Source of the DNA: Eucommia ulmoides | Lineage: Eukaryota; Streptophyta; Magnoliopsida; Garryales; Eucommiaceae | DNA length: 64,000 bases | NCBI GenBank assembly: GCA_016647705.1 | Contig: CM028335.1 | Coordinates: forward strand, 34,238,212 to 34,302,211 | Direction: 5' to 3' | Shown here: one piece after another, positions 7,184 to 61,961 of the stretch | Layout of the letters: each line of letters opens with the position of its first letter | How positions within the stretch are numbered: position 1 is the first letter of the stretch | Made by a program: the position numbers and the translations under genes | Notes under the pieces: model-generated | Seen by the model: the letters and a program-made list of their open reading frames with translations, nothing else | Told to the model about the DNA's origin: nothing | Databases searched by the model: none

Positions 7184-7189
7184 AGTTTT

Positions 7190-7207
7190 TGGCACCATTG
7201 CCAGGGA
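7190..7207 (+). other. primer-binding site, tRNA-Asp type
   Basis: TGGCACCATTGCCAGGGA differs at a few positions from TGGCGCCGTTGCCGGGGA, the complement of the tRNA-Asp 3' end. It lies seven bases after the 5' LTR. Athila-type Ty3/gypsy elements and their non-autonomous partners use this primer. Confidence 0.75.
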
Positions 7208-7369
7208 TTGACTTTTAGATTGTTGTTAATATTGTGAAGAAGTAACTTGATTTTATTTTAGGTATTTATTTTATTTTCAATTTTTGTTTTTAGTTTGTTT
7301 TGTTTTGCGAGGTACTTGGAGATGGCTCATCAACAAGTCCTCATGATTTTTTCTCAATGAGATTCCAGA

Positions 7370-7590
7370 TCATTTTATTGTGCTTGGGAAAGATATAAAG
7401 AGTTTCTCATTCGATTTCCAAATTATGGTTTCCCTAAGAAGTGTCAATTACTGAATTTCTTTGATGGGATACAAGCCGCAACAGGAACTTTGGTAGAAAG
7501 AAGAAATAGTACCACCTCTTTTTACGACCTAACCACAGACCATGCCTATTTGTCATTAGAAGACATGACTGATTTTGACTATCGGAGTTA
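7370..7590 (+). pseudogene. gag-like segment of gag-only element 1
   Basis: The plus-strand frame reads CAWERYKEFLIRFPNY, then GFPK.....LNFFDGIQAAT, then LSLEDMTDFDY. This matches the spacing of the plant retrotransposon gag domain (W-x2-[FY]K-x2-L-x3-P-x7-P-x7-FyxGl, then an LLEDM-like helix). The same block occurs at 24030-24250 in element 2. Gag packages element RNA into particles. The reading frame is decayed. Confidence 0.65.
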
Positions 7591-8094
7591 GAATTATTCA
7601 ACAAGCCACTAAAGCTTGAGGGATTGTTCTAATATTTTGGCGCCATGGATTGATACCCCACACGAACTTATGGAGTTTTCTCCCAATCTGGAAGACACGT
7701 TCAATACATTCATGATGGAAACTCAAAACATCATGAGAGAAATGGGGGACACAAAAGGCTCATCCATACATGGAAACGACCATGAGGAACCTAATGCAAG
7801 TAAGAGGACTTTGGAGGTTCCTTATGAAGATGATTCAAAAGAGGATGAGGGTCAAGAATTATTCGTTGATGACAAATCAGAAAATGATTTGAGTCCTCAC
7901 CTCTTGAAATTGGATTGGTGTTGCCACCGCCGATCATTGAAAGCCACCATAAAAAACCTCTCACAAGTGGGAGAAACTTGGCTACATGCGATGATGATGA
8001 TTCTAATGAGGAAGAAACCCAAGAGTTGATCAATGATGAAGAATCATAAGATAACACTTGTGATTCTCAACCTTTTGAGATCCATGTTGTGATA

Positions 8095-8400
8095 CCAATA
8101 TCGATCAAACAAGAACACATCTATGAGGATCCGATGTGGCTCACCTATCATCCTCCACTTTTATTATTGTTCATTAAGGCCAACCAAGCACATGAGACGG
8201 AGCTGAGTCACGTTGAGAATACGTGCCGATTAATGCCACATTTTGCCAAGCTTGAGGGCGTTCTAAACTAAGACCTATTTGTTGTGTTATATGACACATA
8301 TTATGGGCGGAAGCCACTCTTTGACGAACCCTTCTCTGTGTCAAGCCGAGGACATTAAACCAAGCACTTTTTGGGAGACAACCTAAGTTTTCAAATAATG
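8095..8400 (+). pseudogene. second conserved peptide block of the gag-only family (element 1 copy)
   Basis: The frame starting at 8089 shows HIYEDPMWLTY, then AKLEGVLN. The next bases still encode residues similar to element 2 (VLYDTYY, FDEPFSVSSRG). The block is followed by a 'tttgggagacaacc' box. HIYEDPMW occurs at the equivalent place in element 2. I do not recognise a function; it lies 3' of gag where protease would be expected. The frame is broken in this copy. Confidence 0.55.
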
Positions 8401-10073
8401 GGGCATATGGCTGTGCGCTATGGGAGAAAAGCCCCAAACCGATCACCTTGCCTGGAGTGTCACTGCCAATTGAACTAGGAGGCGAGGTTGCCTCACCTCC
8501 CAAGTACGTGTTGAAAACTTCATTCGTCACCATGCTATATGTCAATTGTTGAGTTCGATGTTGGGTCACTATAGACACTGCCCATTCTATATTTGGGAGG
8601 GATGTTTATGTTTTGTATTTTTTTCTTGTTTAATGAATTTTTATTGGTTATGTAGTTAAGTTTAAATAATTGTTAAATGTTGTGTGGTTTAAGTTAAATT
8701 GTTGTTTAGTTTCACGCATGTTTAGTTGTTAAATGTTGTGTTGTTTAATTTCATTCATGTTTGTTTAGTATTAGTGTAAGTGTGTTTATGTTTGTAGTTG
8801 TTGTTATTGTGTGTTGAGTTTTATAGTTCTTCTTGACCATTACCCGATGATGATATTATCCTCTAGTTGTTTACCGAGGTCAAGCGTAATGCCCATTCAT
8901 GTGTGTTTTGTGTGCTTGACATCTCATTTTGGTAAAATTCATTGTGGACTCAATGTACTAGCTATCCAATTGTTTTGATGCCAATTATCCAGTAGCTAAG
9001 TTCATGACAAATTTAAGGTATTCTATAACCTGATTGGGAAAAACTCGAGGCAAAATCTTAGGCGAGGTAGTTCGGGAGAAATGATTTAGGCATTCATTTT
9101 TATCGCTTGAGCTGTTTAAGCCTTCCTTGCAAAATGTTTTACCCCTATTTACCCCTTCAAAGCCTTTTAGCCATTTCAATTATAAACACACATCAAATAC
9201 CCTAGCCAATTAATTTTTTTCCAAGACATTGTCTCTATACCTAAGGCACGAGCCATGTTTGTAATCAAGTTAGCATTTGTTTGTGCTAATTGAAGTGAGC
9301 GATCGGGTTTTGGGTGAATTTTTGATTGGTTTGGTATTCAAGTACTCACTTGCTATTTTTCTATCGTAGTTCCACACCTATGAAATTGTACAAAAAAATA
9401 AGTTTGGGGGTGTGGTTAAAAAAAAAGTGTAAATATGGTTTTCGATTTGTTTGTTTAGACAAGTGAGTTCTACATTTTAAAAAGTAAGTTCGGGGTTGTT
9501 TCAGATTTGTCTTTGTGGGTATGAGTGTGATTGAGCGCTAAGCGTAGTGCCGTGTGTAACGTTGATCTAAAGGCGCTATCCTATTTTATATTCCTGTTTT
9601 ACCCTTGGCCAATTATTAAAAACCGAACCAAGTCCTTCTGATCTTTTAGAATTGCTTAGCCTATATTAGTGGAAAGTGGAACTTAATCTGGCTTATGGAA
9701 ATCCTATACCGTTTTGGTTTAAGTCATGAACTTTGTTGGTGGATAATCCAATACAGTTTTTGGATGGTTGTGTAATGAAAGTCTTCACACATACACTTTG
9801 AAAGAATCTAGAATGGCATTTACTGTTATTGAATGTTGAAATTCTAGAACACCACATGGTGCATTTTTATTCTTGAACTCGATATGATTGAGGGTTGTTG
9901 AGGGAAAATTTTTTGGTCGATTAGTTGAAATTCAAAACTCACGTGCTGTTATTTTTAGTTCTTTTGACTTTTTCTTCTTTAGTATTTCTGTTTATTAATT
10001 CGTTGTGGTAGTTTGTTTTCTTGTGTTGATGTTTTTGCTCGAGGACTAGCAAAATTTCAAGTTTTGGGGTATT

Positions 10074-11448
10074 TGATAGATAGATTTTATCTATATATTT
10101 TCAATACGAATTTGGTAGTTTTCAAGTGTTTTATAAGTTTTTTAATTCATTTTTATTTGTTTTTATTCAAATCAGGTGTTATGGGAGAAACGGTGCAAAA
10201 TACGTGAAAGTGTTGTAACTTCAAGGTCATTTTTGACCATTATGTGATCATAATTTGAAAAATCACAAAACATGAAGTTGTAGATCTATATCTTAGATTT
10301 TCCATAGGTTTTTGAATCACCTCAATTGGAGTTTGAACGAGAAAGTTACGATAAAAATATGAATCAGGCATCAACACTGTCCATAGCTCGCTGTAGTGAG
10401 AATATGCTCGCTGCAACGCCCTCCCATCAAAGAGTTTATGCCCTCTTCTCGTTGCAGCGCCCAAACACCAGTTGGCCACGCATTTTCTAGATATTTTTAG
10501 GATATTTTGGTATTCTATTTGTATCCACTAATTCCTACATGACCTAGAACATTTTTTAGGAGCCCTACAATCATCCAAGAAAGAGGAGATCATCAATTGG
10601 GGAAGAGAAAACGAGATCGGAGCGACCTTTATGGATGTGGAATCATCCACTCTTCAGATTTGACTATTCTCCTTTACTTCTCTCTTTCATTCTAAACTTT
10701 TGTTGGTTGTTTGATTGTGTATATCTCGTTTTTAGTTGAATATTTGGTTATGGCCATGTGTGGCTAATTTTTTTTATCTAGGGATTTATGTAGTTAACGA
10801 ATATTATGTTTGAGTAAATCTTTGTTTCGTTAACGGTTGTTCATCTCTATTCAATTGTGTTTACCATTTTATTACTTTCATAGTATGCTTGTTATGATAT
10901 TATGGTTGATTTGAGAATACAAGGTTTGACACTTGAGAGAGGTAACCCCGAATTCGGACTAGGGTTAAAACACAACACAACGTTCTAATATTTCAGGAGA
11001 TTATTAGAATGTGTGCAATTCGTAAGATTGGGGCAAGACTCATGTAATCATTTAGACGCTTGATAGAGATATCGGTGTTCATGTGGTTGCATATTTACTC
11101 ACTTTACACTCAAGAGAGGTAGTGAGTGAGTTTTAGACACCTAGATTGTTGAATAGATTGATAGTCGTTAATATAAACTAGACTAAATCAAGCATGTTTA
11201 AATAAATGAGGTTAATCCCTAGATAATCCATTTCTATAGAATTTATTCCAAGTTTTTTAGTTTAGTTTTATATTTTTACAAAAACCCAAAATTGGAACGC
11301 CTAAATAAAGTTCAGTTACGATAATCGCGGTACTTAGAGACAATTTAAACCAATCCTTGTGGATACAACAACCCCTCACTTCCTATACTATTAAACCTTG
11401 ACCTCGTGCACTTGTGAGTAATTCAAAACACATTAAAAAGTCGCAACA
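10074..11448 (+). repeat. 3' LTR of gag-only element 1
   Basis: It starts TGATAGATAGATTTTATC and ends ..TCGCAACA, followed by the second GAAAG. It aligns along its whole length with 5803-7183, including the 'cataatttgaaaaat' and 'tttggttatggccatgtg' blocks. Confidence 0.85.
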
Positions 11449-21015: not shown

Positions 21016-22469
21016 TCACGGTCCACACTAAAAAAAATGTCTTGACTAAAAGATAGAAAGAGAGTGTTGCCCATACCCCATTTTAGGTTGCCCAATTTGG
21101 TGTGACATTTGAAATGGTGGATTGAGGAAGACACTTCTCGAATAAGGTTAGTTTGGCAAAAAAAAAAAAAAAAAACAAAAGAAAGAAAGATACTACACTT
21201 CATTTCTCATCAATCTGTTTTTAATTTCCTGAGGATTTGAAGGATTCTTACAAAACTATTTTTGCTTTAGTGGCAGGAATTTCATCAATAAGTTTTTCCT
21301 GAAAATTAATTTTTACTTTTCTAAGCATTCCAAGGATCCTTACAAAACTATTTTTTGTTTTAAACTGTTTTTTATTTGAATCAACTTAATCCAACAATTA
21401 GACAAATTTTTGTGGCCAATTCTCATATCTAAGACTAACCATTTTTCTGCTCTAAATTGTAGCCTTTTTCTTTCGCTACTTATCTCCCAATGACTATATG
21501 CTCAAGTTAAGATGAGTTAAAATGTTGTAATGCTTTCATATCATCTGATTAAATGTTCCTAATATTAACTACAATTAATTACAATAGATTCATACCATTT
21601 TGTTTTCCAGATTAGTGCACTATATAAGAGAAAGAACACAACTCTGCTTTCTAAGATAAAATAGAACAAAAAAACACACAGAGAAATATATATGAAATTC
21701 CTCAAATTCTTCTGAACTTATATATTCTTATAGCTTCAATCTAGTGTGAATAACACTCTTAGTGCGAAATCGAGTGATCTAGTATTGCAAATAACATTAC
21801 ATTGTAAAAAAGTGAGATTGTGTGAGACGCACCTAAGTGAGCATTCATAAGAGAAATTATCCTTTCAATTAGTGATATCATTAAATAATTGTGCTAAGGA
21901 ACAACTTCACAATGGTATCGCTTCATTTTATAAATCACTTATCACATCGGTGAGTTCATTATAAGTTATATTATACTTATTTGCTCTTATTTTCTCTTGT
22001 GGGTTAAACTTGCTTGTAGAATTGTCTTGAATATCTTGATTCTAGATTACTTGGCTTGAAATTGTTATAGAAAAAATTGGATTAGTTTACTTTTGCTTTC
22101 TAAGAGTTTACACCTATTATTGTAAAATCCAAACGTTTTATGAAAATCAAAAAGAGCTTTCTTATATTAATCTAAAATGATTTTTCATCTTAATCACAAA
22201 ATTCGATGGAATTAGTATATTGGACATGAGATGAAGTCGCATCACGATTAAATTACTCATTGAGATCTTAAATCTCTCACATAGTATTCCAATAAGAGGT
22301 AATATAATTGGACTTTTTCATATCTATCTTTACTTTATATTGAAAATTTTCATAGCTCTTACTTGAGAAAGAATCATACATACACATCTTGTGCTTCATT
22401 GAGATATTGTATTTTTTTCATATATCACGTGATCTTCATAAATACATTTATCTTTACATGATTAATTTT

Positions 22470-23850
22470 TGATAGGTGTGACTTACCTATCTATTTTCAA
22501 ACCAAACTTGTTAGTTTTCGAGTACATTTATTACGTTTTAATATATATATTTTTTTATGTATTTTGTATGAATCAGGTGTGTGGGGGTGAAAAGACATGA
22601 AAACAGATCATAAACGATCAAATCAAACCAAGAACGGTGGACAAACAAACATAGAGGCATAATTCTGAAAACCAGCCCACCGTCGCGGTGGTCAAAATGC
22701 AGAGAATGATCAAAATGTTATTGACAACCCACCGCCAAGGCGATGAAAGAACATGATGGTCCCTGATTCCATCGCCAAGTCCATCGCCTAGGCCGTGACT
22801 TAACCGACATACCCACCACCGCGGCGGTCACTCTGTATAGCTGTTAGATATTTTTTTAGATATTTTGCTTCCTATTTAAGCCTATTTTCTCTCTCCCTTT
22901 TTGATCCCCCGACCATAGGAGACCCCTTAGGGTTCCTAATATTTTGAGAGTGTTTTGGGGTGTGCTCAACCAATTCTGAAGGAGAAGAACACGTTGCAAT
23001 AAAGGAGAAGCGATCGTTGGATGGTTTTAACAGCAATTCTTCGGACTACGACTAAGTTCTTCTGTTTCTCTCTTTATTTTCTTAACTTTGGTAGGTTGTT
23101 GAGCATGTTTAGCTCGGTTTTCATTGTATAAATAGTTATGGCCACGAGTTAAACGAATTTTATTTAGGGATTAATATATTTTATGAAATCGTTGTTTGTT
23201 TAAGTTTGTGTTTTGTTAATGGTTGTTCTTCGCTATTTTGATTGTATTTACAGTTATTCTTTGATATTATGCTTGCTTTAATAATTAAAGAATACAGGGT
23301 TTGACACTCAGAAGAGGTAACCTCGAATTCGGATTAGGGTAAACACAACGCGACGATCTAATAACCTGGGAGGGAGTTAGAAAGTGTGCAATCAATGACG
23401 TTGAGGCAAGACTCATGTGACCTAGTGTCTTTAAGACGTTGAGGGAGACTTCTTCATTGACGTGAAGTTGCATATTTACTCGTCTAACACTCGGGAGATG
23501 TGGCGAGTAAGTTTACGATACAGAGATTGTCGGATAGGTCGAACACTGTTATTGTAAACTAAACGAGACCAAACATATTTTTGTAAACGAAGTCAATCCC
23601 TAGGCAATCTTTTTCCTAAAATATCTCAATATAATATTAGTATAATTAGTTTAATTAACTTAGTATTAGTATTAATTAATTATAAACTACATTTTTATCG
23701 CCTAAATAAAGTTAGGTTATGACAATCATGGTACTTGATAATAATCTCAACCAATCCATGTGGATACGACAATCCTGACTCCTTCCCTTCTATACTAAAA
23801 CTTGACCCGTACACTTGTGGTGAAAGTGACGACGTAATATTTTGCCACCA
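22470..23850 (+). repeat. 5' LTR of gag-only element 2
   Basis: It starts TGATAGGTGTGACTTACC and ends ..TTTTGCCACCA. A less AT-rich stretch at 22675-22820 carries 'caccgtcgcggtgg'-like GC-rich inverted pieces. Its U5 end shares 'cgcctaaataaagtt' and 'gtggatacgacaa' with element 1. Confidence 0.85.
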
Positions 23851-23856
23851 AGTTTT

Positions 23857-23874
23857 TGGCGTCGTTGCCTGGGA
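23857..23874 (+). other. primer-binding site, tRNA-Asp type
   Basis: TGGCGTCGTTGCCTGGGA is two bases from the canonical TGGCGCCGTTGCCGGGGA, and lies just after the 5' LTR. It is better preserved than the site of element 1. Confidence 0.8.
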
Positions 23875-24029
23875 TTGTGTTTTAGATTAAATATTGATAT
23901 TATGAGTAAATGATCCGATTTTAATTTAGGCATTTCTTTTGTGTATAATTTTTCTTTGTTGTTTTTGTTTTTGTTTTCCTGCAGGGTGCTTGAAGATATT
24001 AGATTGACAGGTACTTTTGCATTTCTTTC

Positions 24030-24250
24030 AACAAGATTTTGAGCCATTTTATAGTGCTTGGGATCAATACAAGAAATTTCTATTCCAATATCCAAATCAT
24101 AGTTTCCCAAGAGAATATCAACTGCTGATTTTCCTTGACGGGTAACAGGCCGCAACTAGAATGTGGGTTGAAGGAGGAAATCGTACAACCTCTTTCGACC
24201 AATTATTCGCGGACGAAGCCAATCAATTGTTGGAAGACATGGATGCCTTT
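24030..24250 (+). pseudogene. gag-like segment of gag-only element 2
   Basis: The plus strand encodes FYSAWDQYKKFLFQYPN and then FPREYQLLIFLDG, followed by an acidic LLEDMDAF helix. The order and spacing match the gag domain and the copy at 7370-7590. A downstream 'PWIDTP' stretch is also shared with element 1 (7640). The reading frame is decayed. Confidence 0.65.
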
Positions 24251-24589
24251 TATTATTAAAGTTTCAATATTATGGTGCCATGGATTGATACACCAAGGAA
24301 ATATGAGGAGTCTTATCCCAATCTTGAAGAAATCTTCATTACTTTTATGGGGAAAACTTAAAAAGTCTTGAGGGAAACAAATAACCGGATCAATAAGCAC
24401 GAGGATCGTCTTGATTTTATTGAGACAGTCTACGCCAAAATTGATGTAACCGTAACGTCTCTTCAGACGCAAATAGGTCAGCTAATCTACTTAATTGAGG
24501 CCAAGTCAGAGACAGTGGCACTGAGAGATGAACAATTCACATTTAAATGTGAAAGCCACTAGGAGGAACTGGAAACAAGCTGAAGGAGC

Positions 24590-24856
24590 TTGCCACCATC
24601 GATCCCAGACGATCATATCTACGAGGATCCGATGTGGATCACTTATCCTTCACCGCCAGTAGTAATGTTCTTTTATACCCACCAAGCATATAAACCGGTG
24701 AGGCGTGTCGTCGAAAGATCGAGCCATCCAGAGCAATATCTCGCCAAGCTTGAGGGAGTTCTAAATCAAGACTCGTATATGGTGTTGTACGACACGTACT
24801 ATAGGAGAAAACTGCTCTTTGACAAGCCGTTCTCCGTGTCAGGACGAGGACAATAA
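24590..24856 (+). pseudogene. second conserved peptide block of the gag-only family (element 2 copy)
   Basis: An 88-codon frame reads from SIPDDHIYEDPMWITY through AKLEGVLNQDSYMVLYD to FDKPFSVSGRGQ and a stop. It is the better-preserved copy of the block at 8095-8400. A 'gggaggcaaccca' box follows 15 bp after the stop, as in element 1. I know no named domain for it. Conservation between elements with unrelated LTR U3 sequences argues that it was once translated. Confidence 0.6.
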
Positions 24857-26415
24857 ACCAAATGTTTCGTGGGAGGCAACCCAAGGCAAAAATAAATTTT
24901 ATTTGTCACTGCCGACTTGATTCGGAGACGAGATTCTCTCACCTCCCAAGTATGTGCTCTAAATCCTCTTCATCAGCATGTTTTAATTTCAAATATTGAG
25001 ACTGATGATTGGGCCACTGAGGACACTGTCCATTTTAAGTTCAGAAGTGATGTGTAGTATTTTAATATTGTTAGTTTATGTTATTTTGTTTTTATTGTAT
25101 GCATGTTTGTTTAGGATTAGTTTGTTTAGGTTAGTTGTTATTATGTATTAAGTTTTGACTTCGTCTGGGCCAATACCCAATGATGAGTTTGTCCCCTAGT
25201 TGTTTATTGAGGTCGAGCTTAAAGCTCGTTCATGTGTGTTCTGTGTGCTTAACGTATCATTTTAGTAAAAGTTATTATAGATCCAAAATGTATGAGCATG
25301 TAAACTCAATGTATAACTGTCTATTTGATTTGAAAACGATTATTTGTCAACCAAATTCCTGACAATAGGGATTTTATTGATTTGGGGGAAATTCGAGACG
25401 AAATCCTAGATGAGGTAGTTCAGGAGATATGATTTAGGCATTCATTTGATAGCTTGAGCCTTTAAAGCGTACCTTGTTATATCATTATCCCTCGTTACCC
25501 TATCGAAGCTTAAAAATCTTTTCAATTCTAAACACTTAAACAAATACCCTGGCCTATTGAACTTTTTCCAAACCTTTATCGCTTAACCAAAGGCACAATT
25601 TAAGTGAATCAAGCTCGCAGTTGCAAATGCTACTTGAAGTGATCGGTTGAGTTTAGGGTGAACTTTTAATTGATTCGGTATTCGAGTACTCACTTATCAC
25701 TCTTCTTTCATTTTAACCACACCCATGAAATTCTAATAATCGAATGAGTTTGGGGGTGTAGTATTTGTTTAAAAAAAAAAAAACATATGGACAAATAATA
25801 CAATTTTCGTTTTTTTTTTATAACTGAGTATATCATTTTTGTAAATGAATGTTCAGGGTTGTGTCAATTTATCTGTGGAGTTTTGAGTGTGAGAGTGCCA
25901 AGCATATGTCTCGGGTATCGTCAAGTTAACGACGTTAACTTGTTTTCTATTTTCGATATACTCTTGGCCATATTCCTAAACCGAACCAAGTCCTAATGAT
26001 CTTCTTGGATTTCTCCGAGCCTACATTAGTGGATAATAGAACCCAGGTCAAGCTTATGAATTCCCTATACCTAAAAGATTTTAGTCGTGAACTTTATTGA
26101 GCGATGATCTCATCTAATCAATAGAGAGTTGTATATGTGAGTTTTATCACACACACTTTAACAGGATCTAGAATGGTACTCACTATTATCGAATGTTGAA
26201 ATTCTAGAACACCACATGGTGTGATTTATTCTTGAACTTGATAGGATTGAGGGTCGATGTGGGATTTGGCCAATAGATGATATTCAATTCTTGCACATAA
26301 TTGTTTTTAGTATTTTTCATTTTTAGTTTTTAATTTCTTAATTATTTTTTATATTTTCTTGAATTGTGTGGGTGTTTTGCTCGAGGACTAGCAAAATTCT
26401 AAGTTTTGAGGTATT

Positions 26416-27817
26416 TGATAAGTGTGATCTACCTATCTATTTTTAAACCAAACTTGTTAGTTTTCGAGTACGTTTATTATGTTTCTTACGTTTTAATACG
26501 TTTTTATGTATTTTTGTATAAATCAGGTGTGTGGGGTGAAAATGCATGAAAACAGATCATAAACGATCAAATCGGACCAAGAATGGTGAGAAAACAAACA
26601 TAGAGGCATAATTTTGAAAACCAGCCCACCACCACGGCGTCTAGACCATCGTCACAGTGATCAAAATGCAGAGAATGACAAAAATGTTATTGACATCCCA
26701 CTGCCGAGGTGGTAAAAGAACAAGATGGTCCCTGATTCCACCCCCAAGTCCACCACCTAGGCCGTGACTTAACCAACATACCTACCGCCGCGGCGATCAC
26801 TTTGCACAACTATTAGATATTTTTTTTAGATATTTTGCTCCATATTTAAGCATCTCTCCTCTCTCCCTTTTTGATCGCCCGACCATAGGAGACCCCTTAG
26901 GGTTCCTAATATTTTGAGAGTGTTTTGGGGTGTGCTCAACTAATTCCAAAGGAGAAGAACACGTTGCAATAAAGGACAAGCGATCATTGGACAGTTTTAG
27001 CAGCAATTCTTCGGACTACGACTAAGTTTTTCCGTTTCTCTCTTTATTTTCTTAAATTTGGTAGGTTGTTGAGTATGTTTAGCTTATTTTTCATTGTATA
27101 AATGGTTATGACCATGAGTTAAACGAATTTTGTTTAGGGATTAATATATTTTATGAAATCGTTGTTCGTTTAAGTTTGTGTTTTGTTAATGGTTGTTTTT
27201 CACTATTTTGATTGTGTTTATCGTTATTCTTTAATATTATGCTTGTTTAGATAATTAAAGAATATGGGGTTTAACACTCGAGAGAGGTAACCCCGAATTC
27301 GGACTAGGGTAAACATAACGCGACGATCTAATAACCCAGGAGAGAGTTAGAAAGTGTGCAATCAATGACGTTGGGGCAAGACTCATGTGACCTAGTGTTA
27401 TTAAGACATTGAGGGGGACTTCTTTGTTAACGCAAGGTCGCATATTCACTCATCTAACACTTGGGAGAGGTGGCGAGTGAGTTTATGACATAGAGATTGT
27501 CGGATAGGTCAAACGCCGTTATTGTAAACTAAACGAGACCAAACACATTTTTGTAAATGAAGTTAATCCCTAGGCAATATTTTCCCTAAAATATCTCAAT
27601 ATAATATTAGTATAATTAGTGTAATTAACTTAGTATTAGTATTAATTAATTATAAACTAAATTTTTATCGCCTAAATAAAGTTAGGTTATGACAATCGCG
27701 GTACTTGATAATAATCTCAACTAATCCCTGTGGATATAACAACCCTTACTTATTCCCATCTATACTAAAACTTGACCTGTAAACTTGCAGTGAACGTGGC
27801 GAAATATTCAACCACCA
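26416..27817 (+). repeat. 3' LTR of gag-only element 2
   Basis: It starts TGATAAGTGTGATCTACC, ends ..CAACCACCA and aligns with 22470-23850 throughout, with a small length difference near 26484-26500. Confidence 0.85.
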
Positions 27818-49339: not shown

Positions 49340-50477
49340 GGGAAAATTATCAACCAACCTCAATTTTAGCGTGAAACTACTAATTAAACCTGCATATTTG
49401 AAAATAAACCAAATAATCCCAATCTACAATTTTTTTAAACAATCTAGTCTCAAATTTTAAAAAACGCGAAAATTATATGACAAAATTACCCATGCATAAT
49501 TCTGACATTTATAGCTACCTTATTTGGAGGTTTCACACAAAATTATTTTATTCAAATCAAAATAATTTCTATTGTATATTTTTTTTTTTATGATATAATT
49601 ACATATTTAGATTCGTCTCAATAAAATCTTCAAAATGATATCACATTCAATATTTTTTTTTGATTAGTTTTGGATTCGTATTACATTCAACATATATGTT
49701 ACATGTAATATTATTATTACACCATGTTACATGTAATATTCACACTCGTTATGATGTCCGATCCAACACAAGCAATGTTACATTCCACATGCAATATGCT
49801 ACTTGTATATGGAATGTAATATTGTCAGTATTACTTGTAATATTTCCTATTTACTGTTAACAAAGATATCTTCTTTTACGTGGGAATGTAACATTGTCTG
49901 TGTTGAATCATATTTCATATAGATGTTACATGTAACATCTTAAAATTCGTAGAAAATTAAAAAATCTGGAAGTACCCATGTGGAATGTAATATGAATGTA
50001 AAAATTGAAAACTAATGAAAAAAGTAGTAAATTTGATATCGTTTTGTGTGTGGAATGTAAGATTGCCTATATTGCTTGTAACATTTCCTATTTACTGTCA
50101 ACACATATATTCCCTTTTGCTTGGGAATATAACATTATCTGTGTTGAATCGTATTTCATGTAGATATTACATGTAACATCTTATAATTCGTAGAAAAAAA
50201 AAATGAATTTGGTATCGTTTGAAGATTTTGCTTAGATGAATCTGAATATATACTTATATTGAAAAAAAAAATGTGTACAACAATAGTTATTTTCATTTTA
50301 ATAAATAGTTATCTATTACTTAAATTAGTTCCGCAAGATTGTGATGTATTATGTAGGCGCAATAATTATGGGCATTTTTGTCACAAAATTGGCAAAAGGA
50401 CTGTTCAGTTCATGAAAAAAGTAGTGAGTGTAATCGGTAGTTTCTAACCAATTTTTGGATCTCCTGGTAAGCGCTCC
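49340..50477. mobile_element. MULE-type non-autonomous DNA transposon
   Basis: It is flanked by a perfect 9-bp duplication TAATTTTTA (49331-49339 and 50478-50486), the hallmark of Mutator-like elements. Ends read GGGAAAATTATCA on the left and GGAGCGCTTACCA on the right (reverse complement). Long diverged inverted repeats pair 49380-49660 with 50205-50440: 'tgacaaaattacccatg', 'cagattcatctaagc' and 'aaaatcttcaaa' recur inverted. There is no transposase. The interior is a tandem repeat with TTACATGTAA palindromes. Confidence 0.8.
49660..50205. repeat. tandem 242-bp repeat with TTACATGTAA palindromes (MULE interior)
   Basis: Copies at about 49809 and 50051 share 'atttcctatttactgt', 'ctgtgttgaatc', 'atttcat.tagat.tta' and 'catgtaacatctta.aatt'. 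The palindrome (a/g)TTACATGTAA(t/c) occurs at about 49699, 49729, 49925 and 50168. An incomplete third unit lies before 49809. Confidence 0.7.
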
Positions 50478-51119: not shown

Positions 51120-51768
51120 AGAAGAATTAAAAAATTTCCCTTGTGCCCCACCTCACCCAATGGGTGTGCAATCCAACAGCCTAACCCAATCCACCCGTGT
51201 GACTTGTCCGACCCGAGCCCGATTACTGCAGTTAATGCACTGAACGGGTCGGTCACCGGGTTTAATCCAAGCCCATCCAAAGCAACCCGACCTGGCCGCA
51301 CTCCTACTAAAATAAGGTTTTTTCCAAGGTTTTCGTTCATTTCACAACTCTGTTGCTAACTCTCTTTCTCGCATCTCTCCAATCCTAAGTCCTTAGCCTT
51401 CATTCTTCAATTCCTTATATTACGATGAACGAAATGAACAAATCGAAGACGAAGAAGATGCGATTCTCCAGTCTTCACCTCTCTTCGCCATTGTTAGACT
51501 TCTTCTTCTCTCCAGTCTTCTGCGATTCTTTTTCATTTTTTTTTTCCTTCTTCGCCTCTTCTTCTTATTCTCTTTTTCTTCGGTTATTTGTCTTTGATTC
51601 CCATGAGCATCATCTCGATGATAGGTTTATCGTCTGAAGAACTGGGGAAGATGCAGGGGCAATTGTTAGGCGTGACGGGTATTTGTTTCTGTTTTCATTT
51701 TCCAAGTTTTTGTTCTAATGCATGTTTGTTTCTGTTGAATATGTTCTAAATTTTTTTATAGACCGATT
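51120..51768 (+). promoter_or_regulatory. possible host promoter and 5' exon, interrupted by the chromovirus
   Basis: Composition shifts to GC-richer DNA with 'aagccca' and 'gacccgagcccg' words. A CT-rich leader-like stretch follows (tctctttctcgcatctctcc), then an ATG at 51425 opening a 70-codon frame (NEMNKSKTKKMRFSSLHL...). A second ATG at 51652 leads into 'cgtgacgggtatttgtttctg', which resembles an exon-intron junction. I do not recognise a protein. If a gene existed, the element at 51769 sits in or right after its first intron, and its continuation beyond 61961 is not evident. Confidence 0.3.
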
Positions 51769-52434
51769 TGTCACACCCCACCCCGGACACTAGTCACTGT
51801 GGGGCCGACGTGACGTCGACATGACATCACCTGACCGTCAAATCAACTCATAAAAAGACAATATACATAAAACAATATAAAATCATCTATACAACATATA
51901 CAAAATTTAGTGCTATAAGGACACACCCGTCCCAAAAATAAGAACAACAAAATAAATCTCATGATCCTCTCTTAGGTTCACCTTTGACAGCTCGTCTCAA
52001 AATACTCCCATATGACTCCATCGCATGACACGCATAACTCTAACTAGTGCTAGTAAGGGACCGACCCATAAATTTGCTCCACCTACGAGTGTACTGCCCT
52101 CTTAGTAAAAATATTTTATAATAATAAATCATTCTACAACATCTAAATGGATCAAGCGTAAGTATAGAAACAACACGTAACTAGTAAAATTCTCCATAAT
52201 ATAAGCAGTGAAAATAAACCCATAAATATAATTTCCATTCAAACCCATCTAGTAAAATAATACCAATCACCATAATAAATAATAAATCACCCAATATAAG
52301 TAAAACACCACATCTCAAACACCACTCCACCACAACACACACTAACTAGCCACAGTGATCGTTTTAACTTCACGATCGGGAGTTGCAACGGTATCGTACC
52401 ATCCGTAAGATATGCCTTTCTACGAACACCCATC

Positions 52435-52670
52435 ACTCTGCCGAAGTAAATAATCTCTGCGCAGATAAACATCTAACATCACTCTGCCAAAGCAGATAAA
52501 CATCACTCTGCCAAAGCGGATAACATCACTCTGCCGAAGCGGATCACATCACTTCGTTGAAACGGATAACTTCACTCTATCGAAACAGATAAATACTATG
52601 GTATCGTCCAATCAATACCATCACTCTGCCGAAACAGATAATTATCACTCTGCCGAAATAGATAAATACT
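52435..52670 (-). repeat. tandem CATCACTCTGCCGAAGCGGA repeat in the chromovirus LTR
   Basis: About eight diverged copies of a 23-28-bp unit, catcactctgcc(g/a)aagc.gataa. The same array, with different copy details, is at 59725-59935 in the other LTR. The units may be U5 or R subrepeats. Confidence 0.7.
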
Positions 52671-53047
52671 ATAGTATCGTCAAATCAATAACGTCATCAT
52701 CAAATCACAAATCAATAACATCGTCTAATCAACATTGTCAAATCTCAAACATCACCTTCTATTTCCAAAATTGATTTTTAATCCAAAATCATATTTCTCA
52801 TTTTTCTTTAAAAAAACATCTTATTTCACCAAAACCATTTTTCCACCCTTTATTTTTAGAAAACCAGGTATTTTCCACTCTCTTTTAAAACCATCAAATT
52901 TCAGCGAAAAATCATTTTTAACTTCCTTTCGAAACTAATACAATTCATCGAAAATCCATTTTCTCAACTCACCCAGAAACCTGCTTGATCCATATCATTT
53001 TGAAATCATTTAATTTAACTACAACCATTTTTCATCATCATCATCAT

Positions 53048-53065
<18 letters not shown>

Positions 53066-53114
<49 letters not shown>
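53066..53114. repeat. (CA)n/(TA)n microsatellite at the border of the inverted segment
   Basis: A CA run at 53048-53065 passes into (TA)n ending exactly where the inverted 158-bp segment starts. The mate LTR has only a TA run at this point (60301-60342). Confidence 0.85.
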
Positions 53115-53116
<2 letters not shown>

Positions 53117-53863
53117 TGCTGTGGTGGCGTGTGTGTTGATAGCCGACGGAAGGTTGTCGGAGAGATATGGTAGGGCGGCGAGATTTGATCGGTGCCGAGA
53201 TCTCTTCGTCGGCGGTTGAAGCGGGATAGAACCAGATGCAGAAACTGGAAGAAGAAACAGGGAAAAAAAAGGATATATATATAGTTTGGCAAGAAGACAG
53301 TACACTTACCTGATAATCCGCTCTCAAAAGCTCCACCGACTATCCGCTACTGATCCTCTGATAAATGCAAACCTATTTGTGACAGGGCCTAAATTAATAT
53401 TGTAGAGAAAATACCCTAATCGTGCAATGCAAGCCCTACGTTCATTAATGTCCCATTCCCCATATTTTATTTATAACAATTATTATTCGGTAAATTTCAT
53501 TCCGTTAAAAATTACTACATAAAATTTAATAATACGAACGGTCCCAAATTTTTTAGCCTGGTTAAAATATTTCGATGCTAGATTTTAATTTAATAAACTA
53601 AAATAAACTTAATTTAAAATGTTACCCGTTCCGAATTGTTCATGGGCCACGAGATGGATTTTGGATTTTATTGGGGTTGTTTGTGTATTTTTTTTTTTTT
53701 TGCTTCCTTTTGTTTCTCTGTTTCTTCTTCCAGTTTCTGCATCTGGTTCCATCCCGCTTCAACCGCCGACGAAGAGATCTCGGCACCGATCAAATCTCGC
53801 CGCCCTACCATATCTCTCCGACAACCTTCCGTCGGCTATCAACACACACGCCACCACAGCAGC
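53115..53863. repeat. 158-bp inverted duplication inside the left chromovirus LTR
   Basis: Arm 1 (53115-53272) is the reverse complement of arm 2 (53706-53863) with three differences in 158 bp; a 433-bp spacer separates them. The mate LTR has arm 2 (about 60764-60925) but no arm 1. Where the two LTRs differ, arm 1 follows the left LTR version of arm 2. The duplication therefore arose in this copy after insertion. Confidence 0.88.
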
Positions 53864-54889
53864 AGAATAGAGCACCCATATACACGCACACCGTCGGATA
53901 AACAGGACACACACGCACACTCGCCGGAGGGACAACGACAATTACACCCACACCCATGCAACATTGACGACACACCCCCACACACATTAGTTGCGACGAC
54001 ACACACTCGATCGTCGACGATTGACGAACGACGACCGAACAGAAACACTCACCGCCGACACTGAACGGACCTTCTCCTCTTACTCTCTTTCCTGTTTTGT
54101 TTTAGCCACCCAACAACGACACACCCCCAAGATCACCGATCACACACCTCGCCGGACGATCGCAACGATCACCTCCACCGTCACCTTTCCCCGAACGACG
54201 GCAGCACGCATATAGCTACACACATACTATCGGACGAAAACAGGGCACACACACACATGGCACCGGTCACATACACATCGTTAACGGAACACACCCCCAC
54301 ATGCGATCAACACGCCTACTCACAGCAGCGCACATGAAACACACGGCCAGACGACGGACAACTGAAACCCACGACGATCACCGACTACTCTATCTCTCTA
54401 GACTTCTTTAGATTTCTCTTCTGATCTTTTTTCCCTGAAACGCACTGTATGCATGTATAATATATATATATATATATGCATGCAGGTAGTAGTTTGAAAA
54501 TTGAATCTGAAAATACCACGTTTCCCTCTTCCTTTCCGTTTCCGGATTGTTCTCACGGCCACACACATATATGTGTTTATATGTATTTTTTTTTATATAT
54601 AACTATTGTCTAATTACTCTTCCCCCCTGATTTCTCTAACTCTTCAATTTACATCCAATTCAACTTTTATGATTTTCTCAAATTGTAATTTTACCCCTAA
54701 AATTTTAATTTATTAACTTGAATGACAATTTGAATCCCAAGTTTAGAATGAGTGTTTCAAATTTTGAAATTTGACCCATAAACTTTTTAATTTGAATTTT
54801 AATTAACACAATTTACTCGGAATGTTTTTCCAATTACTCTAAAATGCAATTAAAATGACGTACATGCTACGATTGAGGTCTTACAACTA

Positions 54890-55090
54890 TTCTTTCCTAA
54901 AAGAAATTTTGTCCTGAAATTTATTATCTTAGTCAAACAAAAGTGGGTATTTGTTCCTCATGTCGTCCTCTCGCTCACATGTCGCCTCTTCCACTGTATA
55001 ACTGCGCCATAACACTTTGACTAATGGGATCGTTTTCGTCTGCAATACCTGGTCCTTACAATTTAGGATTTAGACTGGCTCCTCAACGTA
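54890..55090 (-). pseudogene. chromodomain-like tail of the chromovirus polyprotein
   Basis: The minus strand, next to the 3' LTR, encodes remnants of the chromodomain region of Tekay elements, ending with REDDMRNKYPLLF and DKISFRKE. Further upstream SPRYIRPYEILDRVDTTAYRLALP marks the integrase carboxy-terminal region. Chromodomains steer integration toward heterochromatin in this lineage. Confidence 0.65.
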
Positions 55091-55419
55091 GGTCAAATCT
55101 GCTTCCAATTTGAACGGTTGTGAAAAACAACACATGAAAAGGGTCTAGCACAAATCGTAGCATTAATACATGGAAAACGTCGTGTAGTCAAGATAATTCT
55201 GGCGGTAACGCAAGCCTATACGCCGTAGTGTCAACTCGATCTAAAATTTCGTATGGTCTGATATATCTTGGACTCAACTTTCCTTTCTTTCCGAACCTCA
55301 TTATGCCTTTCCATGGAGAAATACGCAAGAACACATGATCCCCCACTTCGAACTCCAACTCCCGCCGGCGTTTGTCTGCATAACTCTTTTGTCGACTCTG
55401 AGCAATTTTTCAATCTTTC

Positions 55420-55644
55420 TCAAATCACCTTTACTTTGTCTGTTGTCACTTGAGCTATATCCGATATCAATAATTTACGTTCACCTACCTCAGTCCAACA
55501 GACTGGGGTTCTGCATCTCCTACCATACAACGCTTCATACAGGGCCATCTCGATTGCTGAATGGTAGCTGTTGTTGTAGGCGAATTCCATCAACAACAAA
55601 TGATTATCCCAGCTACCAGGAAATTTCAGAACACATTCTCTCAA
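55420..55644 (-). pseudogene. chromovirus integrase core fragment
   Basis: A 74-codon frame reads FPGSWDNHLLLMEFAYNNSY and YEALYGRRCRTPVCWTEVGE, a signature of Ty3/gypsy integrase near its carboxy-terminal core. Further integrase pieces lie up to about 56400. Confidence 0.85.
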
Positions 55645-56412
55645 TATCCTCCAACGTCTGAATCGTACGCTCTCATTGACCGTCTGTTTGAGGATGGAAA
55701 GTGGTGCTAAATTTTAGCTTGGTACCTAAAGTAGTTTGGAGGTTCGACCAAAACCTCGAAGTAAATCTCGGATCTCTACTCAACACTATAGAAATCGGTG
55801 TGCTATGCAACCTAACAATCTCATCGATATACAATTGAGCATACTTTTCAAGAGAATACGTCGTCTTTACGGCTAGAAATGAGTGGACTTGGTAAGCCTA
55901 TCAACGATCACCTAGATGGAATTATGCCCCTTTTTTGAGTACGGATTAATCCCATAACGAAATCTATCGTGATATGCTCCCACTTCCACTCTGGAATAGG
56001 TAAAGATTGAAACAACCCACTTGGACGTTGATGCTCAATCTACTGACAAACAAGACACCTGACAATGAATTCTGCGATTTCCTGTTTTATTCCGATCCAC
56101 CAATAATGTTTACATAAATCTCGGTACATTTTGGTATTGCCTGGATGCATCGCGTACGCTGAACTATGTGCTTCCTCCAATATATCATTTTTTTAAATTG
56201 ACGCCATCAGGCACACCCAGTCTATTTCCAATCATCAAAACTTAATCACTATCCCTAACATAATAATTAGTTCTGTGACCATTTTTTACTTCATCCCAAA
56301 TTCTCTCCAATTGAACGTCTGACTTCTACGCTTTAATAATACGATCAATCAACGTTTACCTCAAAGTCAAAGTCACAAGTAACGCTGCCGTCTGACCAAC
56401 CGCTAACTGAAC

Positions 56413-56886
56413 TCACAAAGATCTCAATTCAGCATACAAATTAGTATGAACGACTCTAATGTGCGCGATCGAACTCGTCGATTTTCGACTCAATGCATCC
56501 GCTACAACATTAGCCTTTCCCGGATGATAGTGGATGGTGCAATCGTAATCTTTAATCAACTCTAACAAACGTATTTGCCTCAGATTTAGTTCTTTTTGAG
56601 TAAACAATTACTTCAAACTCTGGTGGTCGATGTATATTTCACCCGTCTCACCATACAGGTAGTGCCTCCAAATCTTCAGGGTGAACACAATTGTTGCCAA
56701 CTCTAAGTCATGCATTGGGTAATTACGCTCATAGTTCTTCAATTTTTGAGATGCATATGCGATTATGTGACCATGCTGCATCAAAACACATCCCAGCCCT
56801 TGGTGTGACGCATCACTGTAGGTCACAAAGCTACTACCTTCAATCGGAAGGGAAAGTATTGGTACTGATATTAGTCTATTCTTCAA
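56413..56886 (-). pseudogene. chromovirus RNase H region
   Basis: Two neighbouring frames show [40 protein letters not shown] and [20 protein letters not shown] then [10 protein letters not shown]. These are the standard gypsy RNase H blocks, ending with the tether motif before integrase. Confidence 0.88.
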
Positions 56887-56979
56887 CTCCTAAAAACTCT
56901 GCTTACATTTGTTAGTCCACACGAATTTGGATTTCTCACGGGTCAATGGGATCAATCGGACAGCTATAATAGAAAGTCC

Positions 56980-57423
56980 CTACACAAACCGTCGACAGTA
57001 ACCCGCCAATCCTAAAAAGCTTTGGATTTCAGTCACATTTTTTGGTCTTTCCCATGGAACAACAATTTCAACTTTCTTTGGGTCCACCTGAATATCGTCT
57101 CCTGCAATAACATGCCCCAAAAATACAACATGATCTAACCAAAATTCGCCTTTACTGAATTTTGCATATAATAGCTTCTCACGCAACGTTTGCAACACAA
57201 TCTGAGTATGGTCTGCATGGTCTTCTCCACTTTGGGAATAGATCAATATATCGTTAATGAATACGATAATAAATTGATCTAGATAAGGTTGGAAGATCCG
57301 ATTTAACAAATCCATGAAGACAGCAGGGGTATTCGTCAATCCAAAGGGTATAACCAGAAATCCATAGTGTCCATATCTCGCACGGAACGCCGGTTTCGCC
57401 ACATCACTGTCTCTTACTTTCAT
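56980..57423 (-). pseudogene. chromovirus reverse transcriptase region
   Basis: A 147-codon frame holds [20 protein letters not shown], the [13 protein letters not shown] catalytic block and [20 protein letters not shown]. The order and spacing fit gypsy RT. Confidence 0.88.
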
Positions 57424-57663
57424 CTAGTGATACCTCGATTGAAGAACTATTTTGGAAAACACTTTAGCTGTCTAAAGCTGATCAAACAAATCATCTATTT
57501 TAGGCAACAGATATTTGTTACGAACCGTCACCCTATTCAACTGCCGATACACATTCTTAATGTGCCATCCTTCTTCTTCACGAACAACACTGGGGCTCCT
57601 CATGGGGAAACATTGGGTCTGATAAACCCACGGTCTAATAAATCTTGCAACTAAATCTTACAA

Positions 57664-58158
57664 CTACACTTTCAATTCTTTCAGCTTGGTAGGCGCCATA
57701 CAATAAGGGGGAATTGATATAAGAGCAATTCCTGGAAGCAACTCAATAATGACTTCCATCTCCCTATCTACTGGCAGCCCTAGAAATTCTTCTGGAAATA
57801 CGTTGGGAAAATCTATGACCACTGAAATATCTGCTATTTGAACTTCTTTCTGACTGGTATCAATCACGTGTGCGAGGTATCCCTGACATCCTTTCTTTAA
57901 TAATCTCCTGGCATCTAAGGCTGAAATCAAACTGACAGGAGGGATAATTCCGTCTCTCAAGAATACAAATTCCGGCTCGCCTGAGATTCGAAATATCACT
58001 TCTTTCTTAAAACAATCCACCGTGGCATGATAGCCGAACAGCAAATCCATACCCAGTATTACATCAAGATCGTAAATATTCAAGGGTAATAGATCTATTG
58101 ACAACTTCCTACCACCAATACGAAGTGAACCATATTTATACGCACTAACTGTTAACAC
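57664..58158 (-). pseudogene. chromovirus protease and start of RT
   Basis: A 164-codon frame contains YDLDVILGMDLLFGYHATVD, the protease flap/core, and then DFPNVFPEEFLGLPVDREME, the linker leading into RT. Upstream (58160-58990) no gag is recognisable. Confidence 0.8.
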
Positions 58159-58159
58159 A

Positions 58160-58990
58160 GACTCATAGTTCTCGGCTACTTCCTATACATCATTCTCTAT
58201 AAATTTTTGCTGCGTTTACCCATTTCGCATAACTTTTAATTTACCTGCTCGTCAACCTAACATGTATTTCCAAAATAAATCCTTTCTAGATTAGTCTACA
58301 TCTTGTCTCTTCTGTTTTTACCAAATCAGATTTAATTTCATACCGCCGAATGATCGTCTCTTTCTGCTTTTAACATGTGAACCTTCCTCTCCAATAAAAT
58401 CACATGCACACCCACACATTTATGATATAATCCGCGTATCTCAAATAGTAGCACAGTGTGTCGTGTAATAAATAAAATGTTGTCTACCAATTTAATTTAA
58501 TGAATAACTTAACATTGGACGAATTAAGTGTGCTCTGCCATACTGTTGGTTTAACAATAAAAATATTATGTACTTCCGACAGGGAATCCCAATGTCAAAT
58601 ACTATAAATAGAATTACTTATCAATTATAATTTTTAATATTCCCAACCACTAGCACCCCTACAATCGCGATCCACCTATTAGCACTACCAACCACATTAT
58701 CCGAACCACCAACTGGCGGTATCACAACTTCGTTGCTCCTCCTAATTGCCAACAAGACAAATAAACATGCACGATGCTAACGTACAATCTAATGCAAAGC
58801 AATAACTATCACTCATGTGCCGAACCCACCTATGGACACCCTATCTCATGGTCCACCACTGGCTCGACACCACCTACCCACCTATGGACAGCCTATCTCA
58901 AAGTCCCCTACTGACTAAACGACTGGCACATCTTCCTATCCCATGATCCTCTACCGACACAACTACTGGCAAGTCTACAGAACCTATAAC
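58160..58990 (-). other. chromovirus interior without recognisable gag
   Basis: This is the position where gag should lie. It has no open frame above 60 codons and contains a repeated 'cccacctatggacac/gcc' plus 'ctatctca' phrase at 58828 and 58878. The sequence looks like deleted or replaced gag. Confidence 0.45.
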
Positions 58991-59005: not shown

Positions 59006-59011
59006 TAAATT

Positions 59012-60294
59012 TGTCACACCCTAGCCCAGACACTCGTCACCGTGGGGCCGACGTGACATCGACATGACATCACCTGACCGTCAAACCAACTCATAAAAAG
59101 ACAATATAAATAAAACAATATAAAATCATCTATACAACATATACAAAATTTAGTGCTATAAGGACACACCCGTCCCAAAAATAGGAACAACAAAGTAAAT
59201 CTCATGAACCTCTTTTAGGTTCACCTCTGACAGCTCGTCTCAAAATAGTCACATATGACTCCATCGCATGACACGCATAACTCTAACTAGTGCTAGTAGG
59301 GGACCGACTCATAAATTTGCTCCACCTGCAAGTGTACTACCTTCTTAGTAAAAATATTTTATAATAATAAATCATTCTACAGCATCTAAATGGATCAAAC
59401 GTAAGTATAGAAACAACACGTAACTAGTAAAATTCTTCATAAAATAAGCAGTGAAAATAAACCAATAAATATAATTAGTAAAATTCTCCATAATATAAGC
59501 AGTGAAAATAAACCAATAAATATAATTTTCATTCAAACCCATCTAGTAAAATAATACCAATCACCATAATAAATAATAAATCATCTAATATAAGTAAAAC
59601 ACCACATCTCAAACACCACTCCACCACAACACACACTGGCTAGCCATAGTGATCGTTTTAACCTCATGATCGGGAGTTGCAACGGTACCGTACCATCCGT
59701 AAGATATGCCTTCCTATGAACACTCATCACTCTACCGAAGTAGATAATATCTACGCAAATAAACATATAACATCACTCTGCCAAAGCAAATAAATATCAC
59801 AATGCCGAAGCAGATAACATCACTCCGCCAAAACGGATAACCTCACTTTGTCGAAACAGATAAATACTATGGCATCGTCCAATCAATAACATCGTCATAT
59901 CAATACCATCACTCTGTCGAAACAGATAAATACTATAGTATCGCCAAATCAATAACGTCATCATCAAATCACAAATCAATAACATCGTCTAATCAATATC
60001 GTCAAATCTCAAACATCACCTACTATTTCAAAAACTGATTTTTAATCCAAAATCATATTTCTCATTTTTCTTTAAAAAAACATCTGATTTTACCAAAACC
60101 ATTTTTCCACCCTTTATTTTTAGAAAACCAGGTATTTTCCACTCTCTTTTAAAACCACCAAATTTCAGTGAAAAACCATTTTCAACTTCCTTTCAAAACC
60201 AACACAATTCATCGAAAATTCATTTTCTCAACTCACCCAGAAACCTGCTTGATCCATATCATTTTGAAATCATTAATTTAACTACAACCATTTT

Positions 60295-60345
<51 letters not shown>

Positions 60346-61956
60346 TGACAAGAAGACAGTACACTCACCTGATAATCCGCTCTCAAAAGCTCCACCGACT
60401 ATCCGCTACGGATCCTCCGGTAAATGCGAACCTATTTGTGACAGGGCCTAAATTAATATTATAGAGAAAATACCCTAATCGTGCAATGCAAGCCCTACGT
60501 TCATTAATGTCCCATTCCCCATATTTTATTTATAACAATTATTATTCGGTAAATTTCATTCCGTTAAAAATTACTACATAAAATTTAATAATATGAACGG
60601 TCCTAAATTTATTAGTCCGGTTAAAACATTTCGATGTTAGATTTTAATTTAATAAACTAAAATAAACTTAACGAAAAACGTTACACGTTCCGAATCGATC
60701 ATGGGCCGCGAGATGGATTTTGGATTTTATTGGGGTTGTTTGTGTAATTTCCTTTTTTTTTTCTTCATTTCTTTTCCCTGTTTCTTCTTCCCGTTTCTGC
60801 ATCTGGTTTCGTCGCGCTTCAACTGTAGACGAAGAGATCTCGCCACCGATCAAATCTCACCGCCCCACCATCTCTCTCTCTCTCCGACAACCTTCCGTCG
60901 GCTATCAACACACGCCCCCACAGCAGCAGAACAGAGCACCCATATACACGCACACCGTCGGATGAACAGGACACACACGCACACTCACCGGAGGGACAAT
61001 GACGATTACACCCACACCCATGCAACATTGACGACACACCCCTACACACATTAGTTGCGACGACACATACTCGATCGTCGACGATTGACGAACGACGACC
61101 GAATAGAAACACTCACCGCCGACACTGAACGGACCTTCTCCTCTTACTCTCTTTCCTGTTTCGTTTTAGCCAACCAACAACGACACACCCCCAAGATCAC
61201 CGATCACACACCTCGCCGGACGATCGCAACGATCACCTCCACCATCACCTTTCCCCAAACGACGGCAGCACGCATACAGCTACACACACCCCCCATCGGA
61301 CGAAAATAATGCACACACACACATGACACTAGTCACATACATATCGTCAATGGAACACACTCCCACATGCGATCAACACGCCTACTCACAGCAGTGCACA
61401 CGAAACACACGGCTAGACGACAGACAACTGAAACACACGACGATCACAGGCTACTCTCTCTCTCTAGACTTCTTTGGATTTCTCTTCTGATTTTTTTTCC
61501 CTGAAATGCACTGTATGCATGTATATATATATATATATATATGCATGCAAGTTGTGGTATGAAAATTGAATCTGAAAATGCCACGTCTCCCTCTTCCTCT
61601 TCGTTTCTGGATTGTTTTCACGGCCATGAACATATTTGTGTTTATATGTATATTTTGTTTTATATGATAACTATTGTCTAATTACTCTTCCCCCCCTGAT
61701 TTCTCTAACTCTTTATTTTACATCCAATTCAACTTTAATGATTTTCTCAAATTGTAATTTTACCCCTAAAATTTTAATTTATTAACTTGAATGACAATTT
61801 GAATCCCAAGTTTAGAATGAGTGTTTCAAATTTTGAAATTTGACCCATAAACTTTTTAATTTGAATTTTAATTAACACAATTTACTCCGATTTTTTTTTT
61901 CCAGTTACTCTAAAATACAATTAAAATGACGTATGTGCTACGATTGAGGTCTTACG
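59012..61956 (-). repeat. 5' LTR of the chromovirus (right copy)
   Basis: The plus strand runs from TGTCACACCCTAGCCC to ..GAGGTCTTACG. A 57-bp tandem duplication at about 59420-59527 ('agtaaaattct.cata..ataagcag') is not in the left LTR. It also carries the SSRs at 60301-60342 and 61519-61541. Confidence 0.9.
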
Positions 61957-61961
61957 GATTT

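What the first reader, a model, noticed from the sequence alone, without database searches (positions are those of the whole stretch)
53115..53863. Post-insertion inverted duplication inside one chromovirus LTR, started at a (TA)n tract
Seen: a 158-bp segment (53115-53272) is the reverse complement of 53706-53863 with three differences. It sits exactly between a (CA)n(TA)n run and a short TA run, and is absent from the mate LTR. At many sites where the two LTRs differ (at least about 14 in this segment), the inverted copy follows the left LTR. Inference: after integration a break or fork stall at the TA run was repaired by copying nearby sequence in inverted orientation (template switching). 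The mate LTR is an internal control that dates and polarises the event.
Basis: partly seen in the sequence, partly recalled or inferred. Interest (0 to 1): 0.72.

Follow-up and report, generated by a model that had tools for sequence, protein, structure and literature searches.

The report
Inverted copy inside one retrotransposon LTR
After an old plant retrotransposon had landed, a 158-base piece of one of its two end repeats was copied back-to-front into a nearby run of TATATA, probably during repair of a break; a clean example of an ordinary kind of mutation.

Summary
53115-53272 is the reverse complement of 53706-53863 with 3 mismatches in 158. It splits a TA run in the left LTR of an old, decayed Ty3-type element. 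The mate LTR has a plain 43-bp TA tract there, and 37 of 37 other family copies fetched have a short TA- or AT-rich tract without the arm (40 of 117 candidates were scored). The left TA/arm junction occurs once in the 947-Mb assembly at up to 2 mismatches. At 14 of the 16 substitution sites where the two LTRs differ, the arm follows the left LTR; at 2 it follows the right. Only 6 of the 14 polarise the event, because there the left base is the derived one; 3 of these 6 occur in 0 of 37 relatives. So the arm was copied from this very LTR after integration, probably late in the element's life. Only 1 nt is shared at each junction, so break repair with a templated inverted filler and replication-fork template switching cannot be told apart. 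Both are known mechanisms: a cleanly controlled example, not a new kind. Transcribed, it would form a long hairpin RNA; whether it is transcribed was not testable.

The parts
51769..54885 (-). left LTR (3' LTR of an element read on the - strand)
   Evidence: self-comparison 51766-54884 vs 59009-61955 in pieces; ends read by eye; element strand from pol pieces
59012..61956 (-). right LTR (mate, internal control)
   Evidence: as above; 188 of 2848 aligned bases differ, K2P 0.070, TA tracts and arm left out
51765..51768 (.). GATT flanking the element on the left, possible target-site duplication (4 bp only, so weak)
   Evidence: read
61957..61960 (.). GATT flanking the element on the right, possible target-site duplication; last base of the LTR beside it reads G where the inner LTR end reads A
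   Evidence: read
53065..53114 (.). 50-bp TA tract, left part of the split tract
   Evidence: Tandem Repeats Finder
53115..53272 (-). the new arm: inverted copy of 53706-53863; absent from the mate and from 37 of 37 fetched family copies
53273..53283 (.). 11-base TA run, right part of the split tract
53706..53863 (+). template segment, present at the same place in the mate LTR and the fetched family copies
60300..60342 (.). 43-bp TA tract at the equivalent place of the mate LTR
60764..60927 (+). mate-LTR equivalent of the template segment
   Evidence: 86% to the arm
54929..58182 (-). decayed pol pieces: protease 57664-58182, RT 56980-57423, RNase H 56608-56889, integrase zinc finger 56040-56192, SH3-like 55188-55409, weak chromodomain 54929-55069
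   Evidence: Pfam on separate pieces; 4 of the 9 pieces had no match above cut-off

Best explanation
A single post-integration, DNA-level mutation. The TA run of the left LTR broke or stalled replication; one end copied 158 nt of the same LTR, about 430 bp away, in inverted orientation; the copy was then joined to the other side of the TA run. Shown: which copy is new, where its template lies, and that it happened after integration. Inferred: that the TA run caused the lesion, and the enzymology. I lean to double-strand-break repair with a templated inverted filler closed by end joining (about 0.5) over a one-fork template switch (about 0.35).
For: Arm absent from the mate LTR and from 37 of 37 other family copies fetched; left junction found once in the assembly at up to 2 mismatches, backward-pattern control 0; by substitutions the arm is 1.9% from its template and at least 7.6% from each of the other 38 rows compared; arm + left LTR grouped with 100/99 support, on a tree whose bootstrap had not settled; 6 left-derived substitutions in the arm, 3 of them in 0 of 37 relatives, and a shared 6-base loss that only 1-3 of 37 relatives show per column; at 2 of the 3 arm/template differences the template is the changed one, as expected for mutation after the copying; GATT on both flanks is in keeping with one insertion.
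Against: Each junction shares only 1 nt, so no microhomology visibly primes the copy. 158 bp is longer than the great-ape template switches (median 12, maximum 128) and near the top of yeast foldback inversions (2 to about 150 bp). TA causation rests on one case: 2 of the 12 TA tracts of at least 10 bp in the window are the two halves of this site, and none of the other 10 borders an inverted pair; 0 of 37 relatives has an insert at this tract. Divergence between the LTRs is patchy and in the template segment they are not each other's nearest rows, which weakens the dating and the use of the mate as control there. No reads were seen.
Confidence: 0.88

Rival explanations
1. Ancestral structure: the arm was in the element before integration and the mate LTR lost it by slippage between the two TA runs.
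For: TA runs on both sides would allow an exact deletion.
Against: 37 of 37 other fetched copies lack the arm; the arm carries left-LTR-derived changes, which would require arm-to-arm conversion as well.
Confidence: 0.03
2. Assembly or library artefact (fold-back chimera).
For: Inverted chimeras are known artefacts (recalled); raw reads are not available here.
Against: Three differences between the arms; at two of them the arm keeps the family base and the template is changed. Only this place matches the whole 766-base left flank, so no second allele or haplotig was found to compare (40 of 98 candidates scored).
Confidence: 0.04
3. Insertion of a fragment from another family copy (ectopic donor or captured extrachromosomal DNA) that happens to be inverted.
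For: Many family copies exist (117 first-look candidates, 40 scored); in 53706-53863 the two LTRs are not each other's nearest rows.
Against: By substitutions the arm is four times closer to its neighbour than to the nearest of the other 38 rows.
Confidence: 0.05

Closest known systems
Short-range template switch mutations, four-point model (PMC7954356, passages read; PMC8794818, abstract and opening read)
   Same: A nearby stretch is copied in reverse complement between two switch points, giving a new inverted repeat; AT-rich surroundings are reported as enriched.
   Different: 158 bp is longer than the great-ape maximum of 128; polarised here through LTR mates and family copies, not species alignments.
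Templated / inverted insertions at double-strand breaks: yeast foldback inversions (PMC11724301, passages) and Arabidopsis templated insertions, partly reverse complement (PMC5217109, PMC10923293, passages)
   Same: Local template, inverted orientation, little homology at the joined end.
   Different: The yeast ones are mostly under 14 bp and all are at induced breaks; here the template is about 430 bp away and the event is natural.
Mu killer of maize (PMC3440606, search listing only)
   Same: An inverted duplication of transposon sequence able to make hairpin RNA.
   Different: Mu killer's proposed hairpin is about 4 kb and it silences MuDR; no transcript or small RNA was testable here.

Membership tests
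Post-integration templated inverted duplication (template-switch / filler type) | Reverse-complement copy of a nearby template, template retained | tested here: met
Post-integration templated inverted duplication (template-switch / filler type) | Derived relative to an unmutated reference | tested here: met
   mate LTR and 37 of 37 fetched copies lack it
Post-integration templated inverted duplication (template-switch / filler type) | Post-integration changes of the host LTR carried into the copy | tested here: met
   6 left-derived substitutions in the arm, 3 of them in 0 of 37 relatives
Post-integration templated inverted duplication (template-switch / filler type) | Priming microhomology at a junction | tested here: inconclusive
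   1 nt at each junction (T at 53114, A at 53273), near chance; later change of TA length could hide more
Ty3-type chromovirus | Ty3-order pol with integrase C-terminal chromodomain | tested here: inconclusive
   protease, RT, RNase H, integrase and SH3-like pieces above cut-off in the Ty3 order; Chromo E 0.0026, 18.1 bits against a cut-off of 25.1, at the expected place
Hairpin siRNA locus (Mu killer-like) | Transcribed hairpin giving small RNAs | not testable with these tools
   53110-53870 folds at -411.7 against a mean of -185.9 kcal/mol for 20 shuffles, as any such repeat would

The most novel reading that the evidence does not exclude
The event made a new hairpin small-RNA locus inside a retrotransposon LTR, whose 158-bp stem, 84-91% identical to the 37 other scored family copies, feeds silencing of the family in trans.
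Probability: 0.03. Interest if true: 0.6.

Novelty: new member of a known kind. Interest (0 to 1): 0.27.

Why it matters
The two LTRs of an element start out identical (established knowledge), so they are built-in controls for dating and polarising local rearrangements. This case shows that the logic works on one assembly. A genome-wide count of inverted copies beside TA tracts in one LTR of a pair would test whether long TA runs break or stall forks in plant germ lines. As a single event it is ordinary.

Tried and rejected
Ancestral arm with loss from the mate: rejected (37 of 37 fetched copies without it; shared left-derived changes). TA site as an insertion hot spot in this family: not seen, the tracts vary in length and make-up but none of 37 holds an insert like this. 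Foldback priming by TA microhomology: no more than 1 nt found. Local excess of L/R differences in the segment as a mark of error-prone repair: 16 seen, 10.3 expected, Poisson P 0.06, not convincing; CpG sites differ at 47 of 272 against 141 of 2576 elsewhere. Other inverted repeats of at least 40 bp in the relatives: hits in 2 of 37 (L020, L031), which proved to be a short family-wide inverted pair, not a second arm. A sample of random stretches to count other TA-bordered inverted copies was planned but not obtained. Paper searches: the listings shown (7 to 20 papers each, often of many more) held no paper on such an event in an LTR that I recognised; I do not claim that none exists.

Full report
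What is there. The window lies in an unnamed assembly (G000, 946.7 Mb, 391 contigs; C11:34238212-34302211). Two LTRs, about 51769-54885 and 59012-61956, flank about 4.1 kb carrying decayed Ty3-type pol pieces on the minus strand: protease, RT, RNase H, integrase zinc finger and SH3-like domain (4 of 9 pieces without a match above cut-off) and a weak chromodomain match. No gag was recognised in the two pieces tried. GATT stands on both outer flanks; at 4 bp this is weak, but with the shared orientation and order I take the pair as one insertion. The LTRs differ at 188 of 2848 aligned bases (K2P 0.070).

The observation. 53115-53272 is the reverse complement of 53706-53863 with 3 mismatches. It splits a TA tract: 50 bp of TA before it and 11 bases after it. 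The mate LTR has 43 bp of plain TA there. With the low-complexity filter on, BLAST found 2 inverted pairs of at least 50 bp within 6 kb in the window, and only this one borders a TA tract.

Which copy is new. A genome search with the arm gave 40 scored matches of 117 candidates: the arm, its template, the mate, and 37 other places, all 37 of which I fetched. In 37 of 37 the arm query matches once (E up to 1e-5), at the template position, and the TA site holds a short TA- or AT-rich tract, in several copies interrupted by single other bases, with no arm. By their spacing some of the 37 are LTR mates of each other, so they are fewer than 37 insertions. The left junction pattern occurs once in the genome at up to 2 mismatches; an arm with a more changed junction would escape that search. 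So 53115-53272 is new.

When, and from what. In an alignment of arm, left, right and 37 relatives, 27 columns differ among the first three: 24 with arm = left (14 substitutions, 10 gap columns of which 2 are at the edge), 2 with arm = right, 1 with the arm alone. At 6 of the 14 substitutions (columns 8, 29, 80, 103, 117, 161) the right LTR has the family majority base and left + arm the derived one; 3 of these (29, 80, 161) occur in 0 of 37 relatives, the others in 4, 2 and 1. One column (48) is mixed in the family (26 to 11), and at the other 7 the right LTR is the changed one, so those say nothing on timing. Left and arm also share a 6-base loss in a TC run, which 1-3 of 37 relatives show per column. 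At the two arm = right columns (9, 14) the left template has changed since the copying. Arm and template differ by 1.9% (3 of 158; 95% Poisson interval 0.4-5.5%), against 6.6% for the LTR pair: ratio 0.29 (0.06-0.84). The event is thus later than integration, probably well later. Conversion between the arms would make it look younger.

A caution. Divergence along the LTRs is patchy (1.5-12% in the 14 blocks of 200 bp with over 100 bases, chi-square 50.8, 13 df, P 2e-6; still P 2e-4 without CpG sites). Of 5 blocks compared with the relatives, in 2 (53485-53690 and 53706-53863) each LTR is closer to some other family copy than to its mate, in 1 (53285-53484) the right LTR is so by a hair, and in 2 (53864-54263) the mates are nearest. 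Ectopic conversion of one LTR is possible there. If so, some 'left-derived' changes came in as a patch and not one by one; that would blur the dating but not the link of arm to left LTR (support 100/99; in that tree 1 of 37 inner branches is starred and the bootstrap had not settled).

How. The junctions share 1 nt each (T at 53114, A at 53273). The template is kept, no flank is visibly lost, and both sides of the insert are TA. This fits a break or stalled fork in the TA run followed by inverted copying from about 430 bp away. Yeast foldback inversions of 2 to about 150 bp are closed by NHEJ with 0-5 bp of homology (PMC11724301, passages). Arabidopsis break repair gives templated insertions, some reverse complement, many matching DNA within 100 bp (PMC5217109, passages). 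Great-ape template switches have median 12 and maximum 128 bases and are enriched in AT-rich and poly(dA:dT) DNA (PMC7954356, passages). Size and junctions favour break repair a little; the sequence cannot decide.

Consequence. The strand 53110-53870 folds at -411.7 kcal/mol against a mean of -185.9 for 20 shuffles, as an inverted repeat must. Transcription and small RNA were not testable.

Verdict. This is a clean, internally controlled example of a known class of mutation in a decayed element; interest is modest.

Noticed in passing
53485-53863 versus 60544-60927: LTR-pair divergence is patchy, and in this stretch each LTR is closer to some other family copy than to its mate; possible ectopic gene conversion, CpG only partly explains it.
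   Followed up: partly
52087-52103 with 53291-53307 (and 60350-60366): A short inverted pair of about 17 nt: the sequence just right of the TA site recurs inverted about 1.2 kb to its left. At up to 2 mismatches the inverted member is found in 30 of 37 family loci and the other in 35 of 37, so it is an old family feature, perhaps a motif pair.
   Followed up: partly
53032-53064: The left LTR has a (TCA)n(CA)n run before the TA tract that the mate lacks; family copies L018 and L026 have CA runs at this site, so it may be unrelated to the arm.
   Followed up: partly
52467-52665 and 59767-59863: A degenerate 23-bp tandem repeat in both LTRs, 8.4 copies in the left and 4.2 in the right.
   Followed up: no
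49547-49661 and 50194-50305: A second inverted pair, 117 columns at 79%, not bordered by TA runs; perhaps transposon ends.
   Followed up: no
5803-11448 and 22468-27802: Two further direct-repeat pairs of about 1.4 kb at 88%, perhaps LTR pairs of other elements.
   Followed up: no
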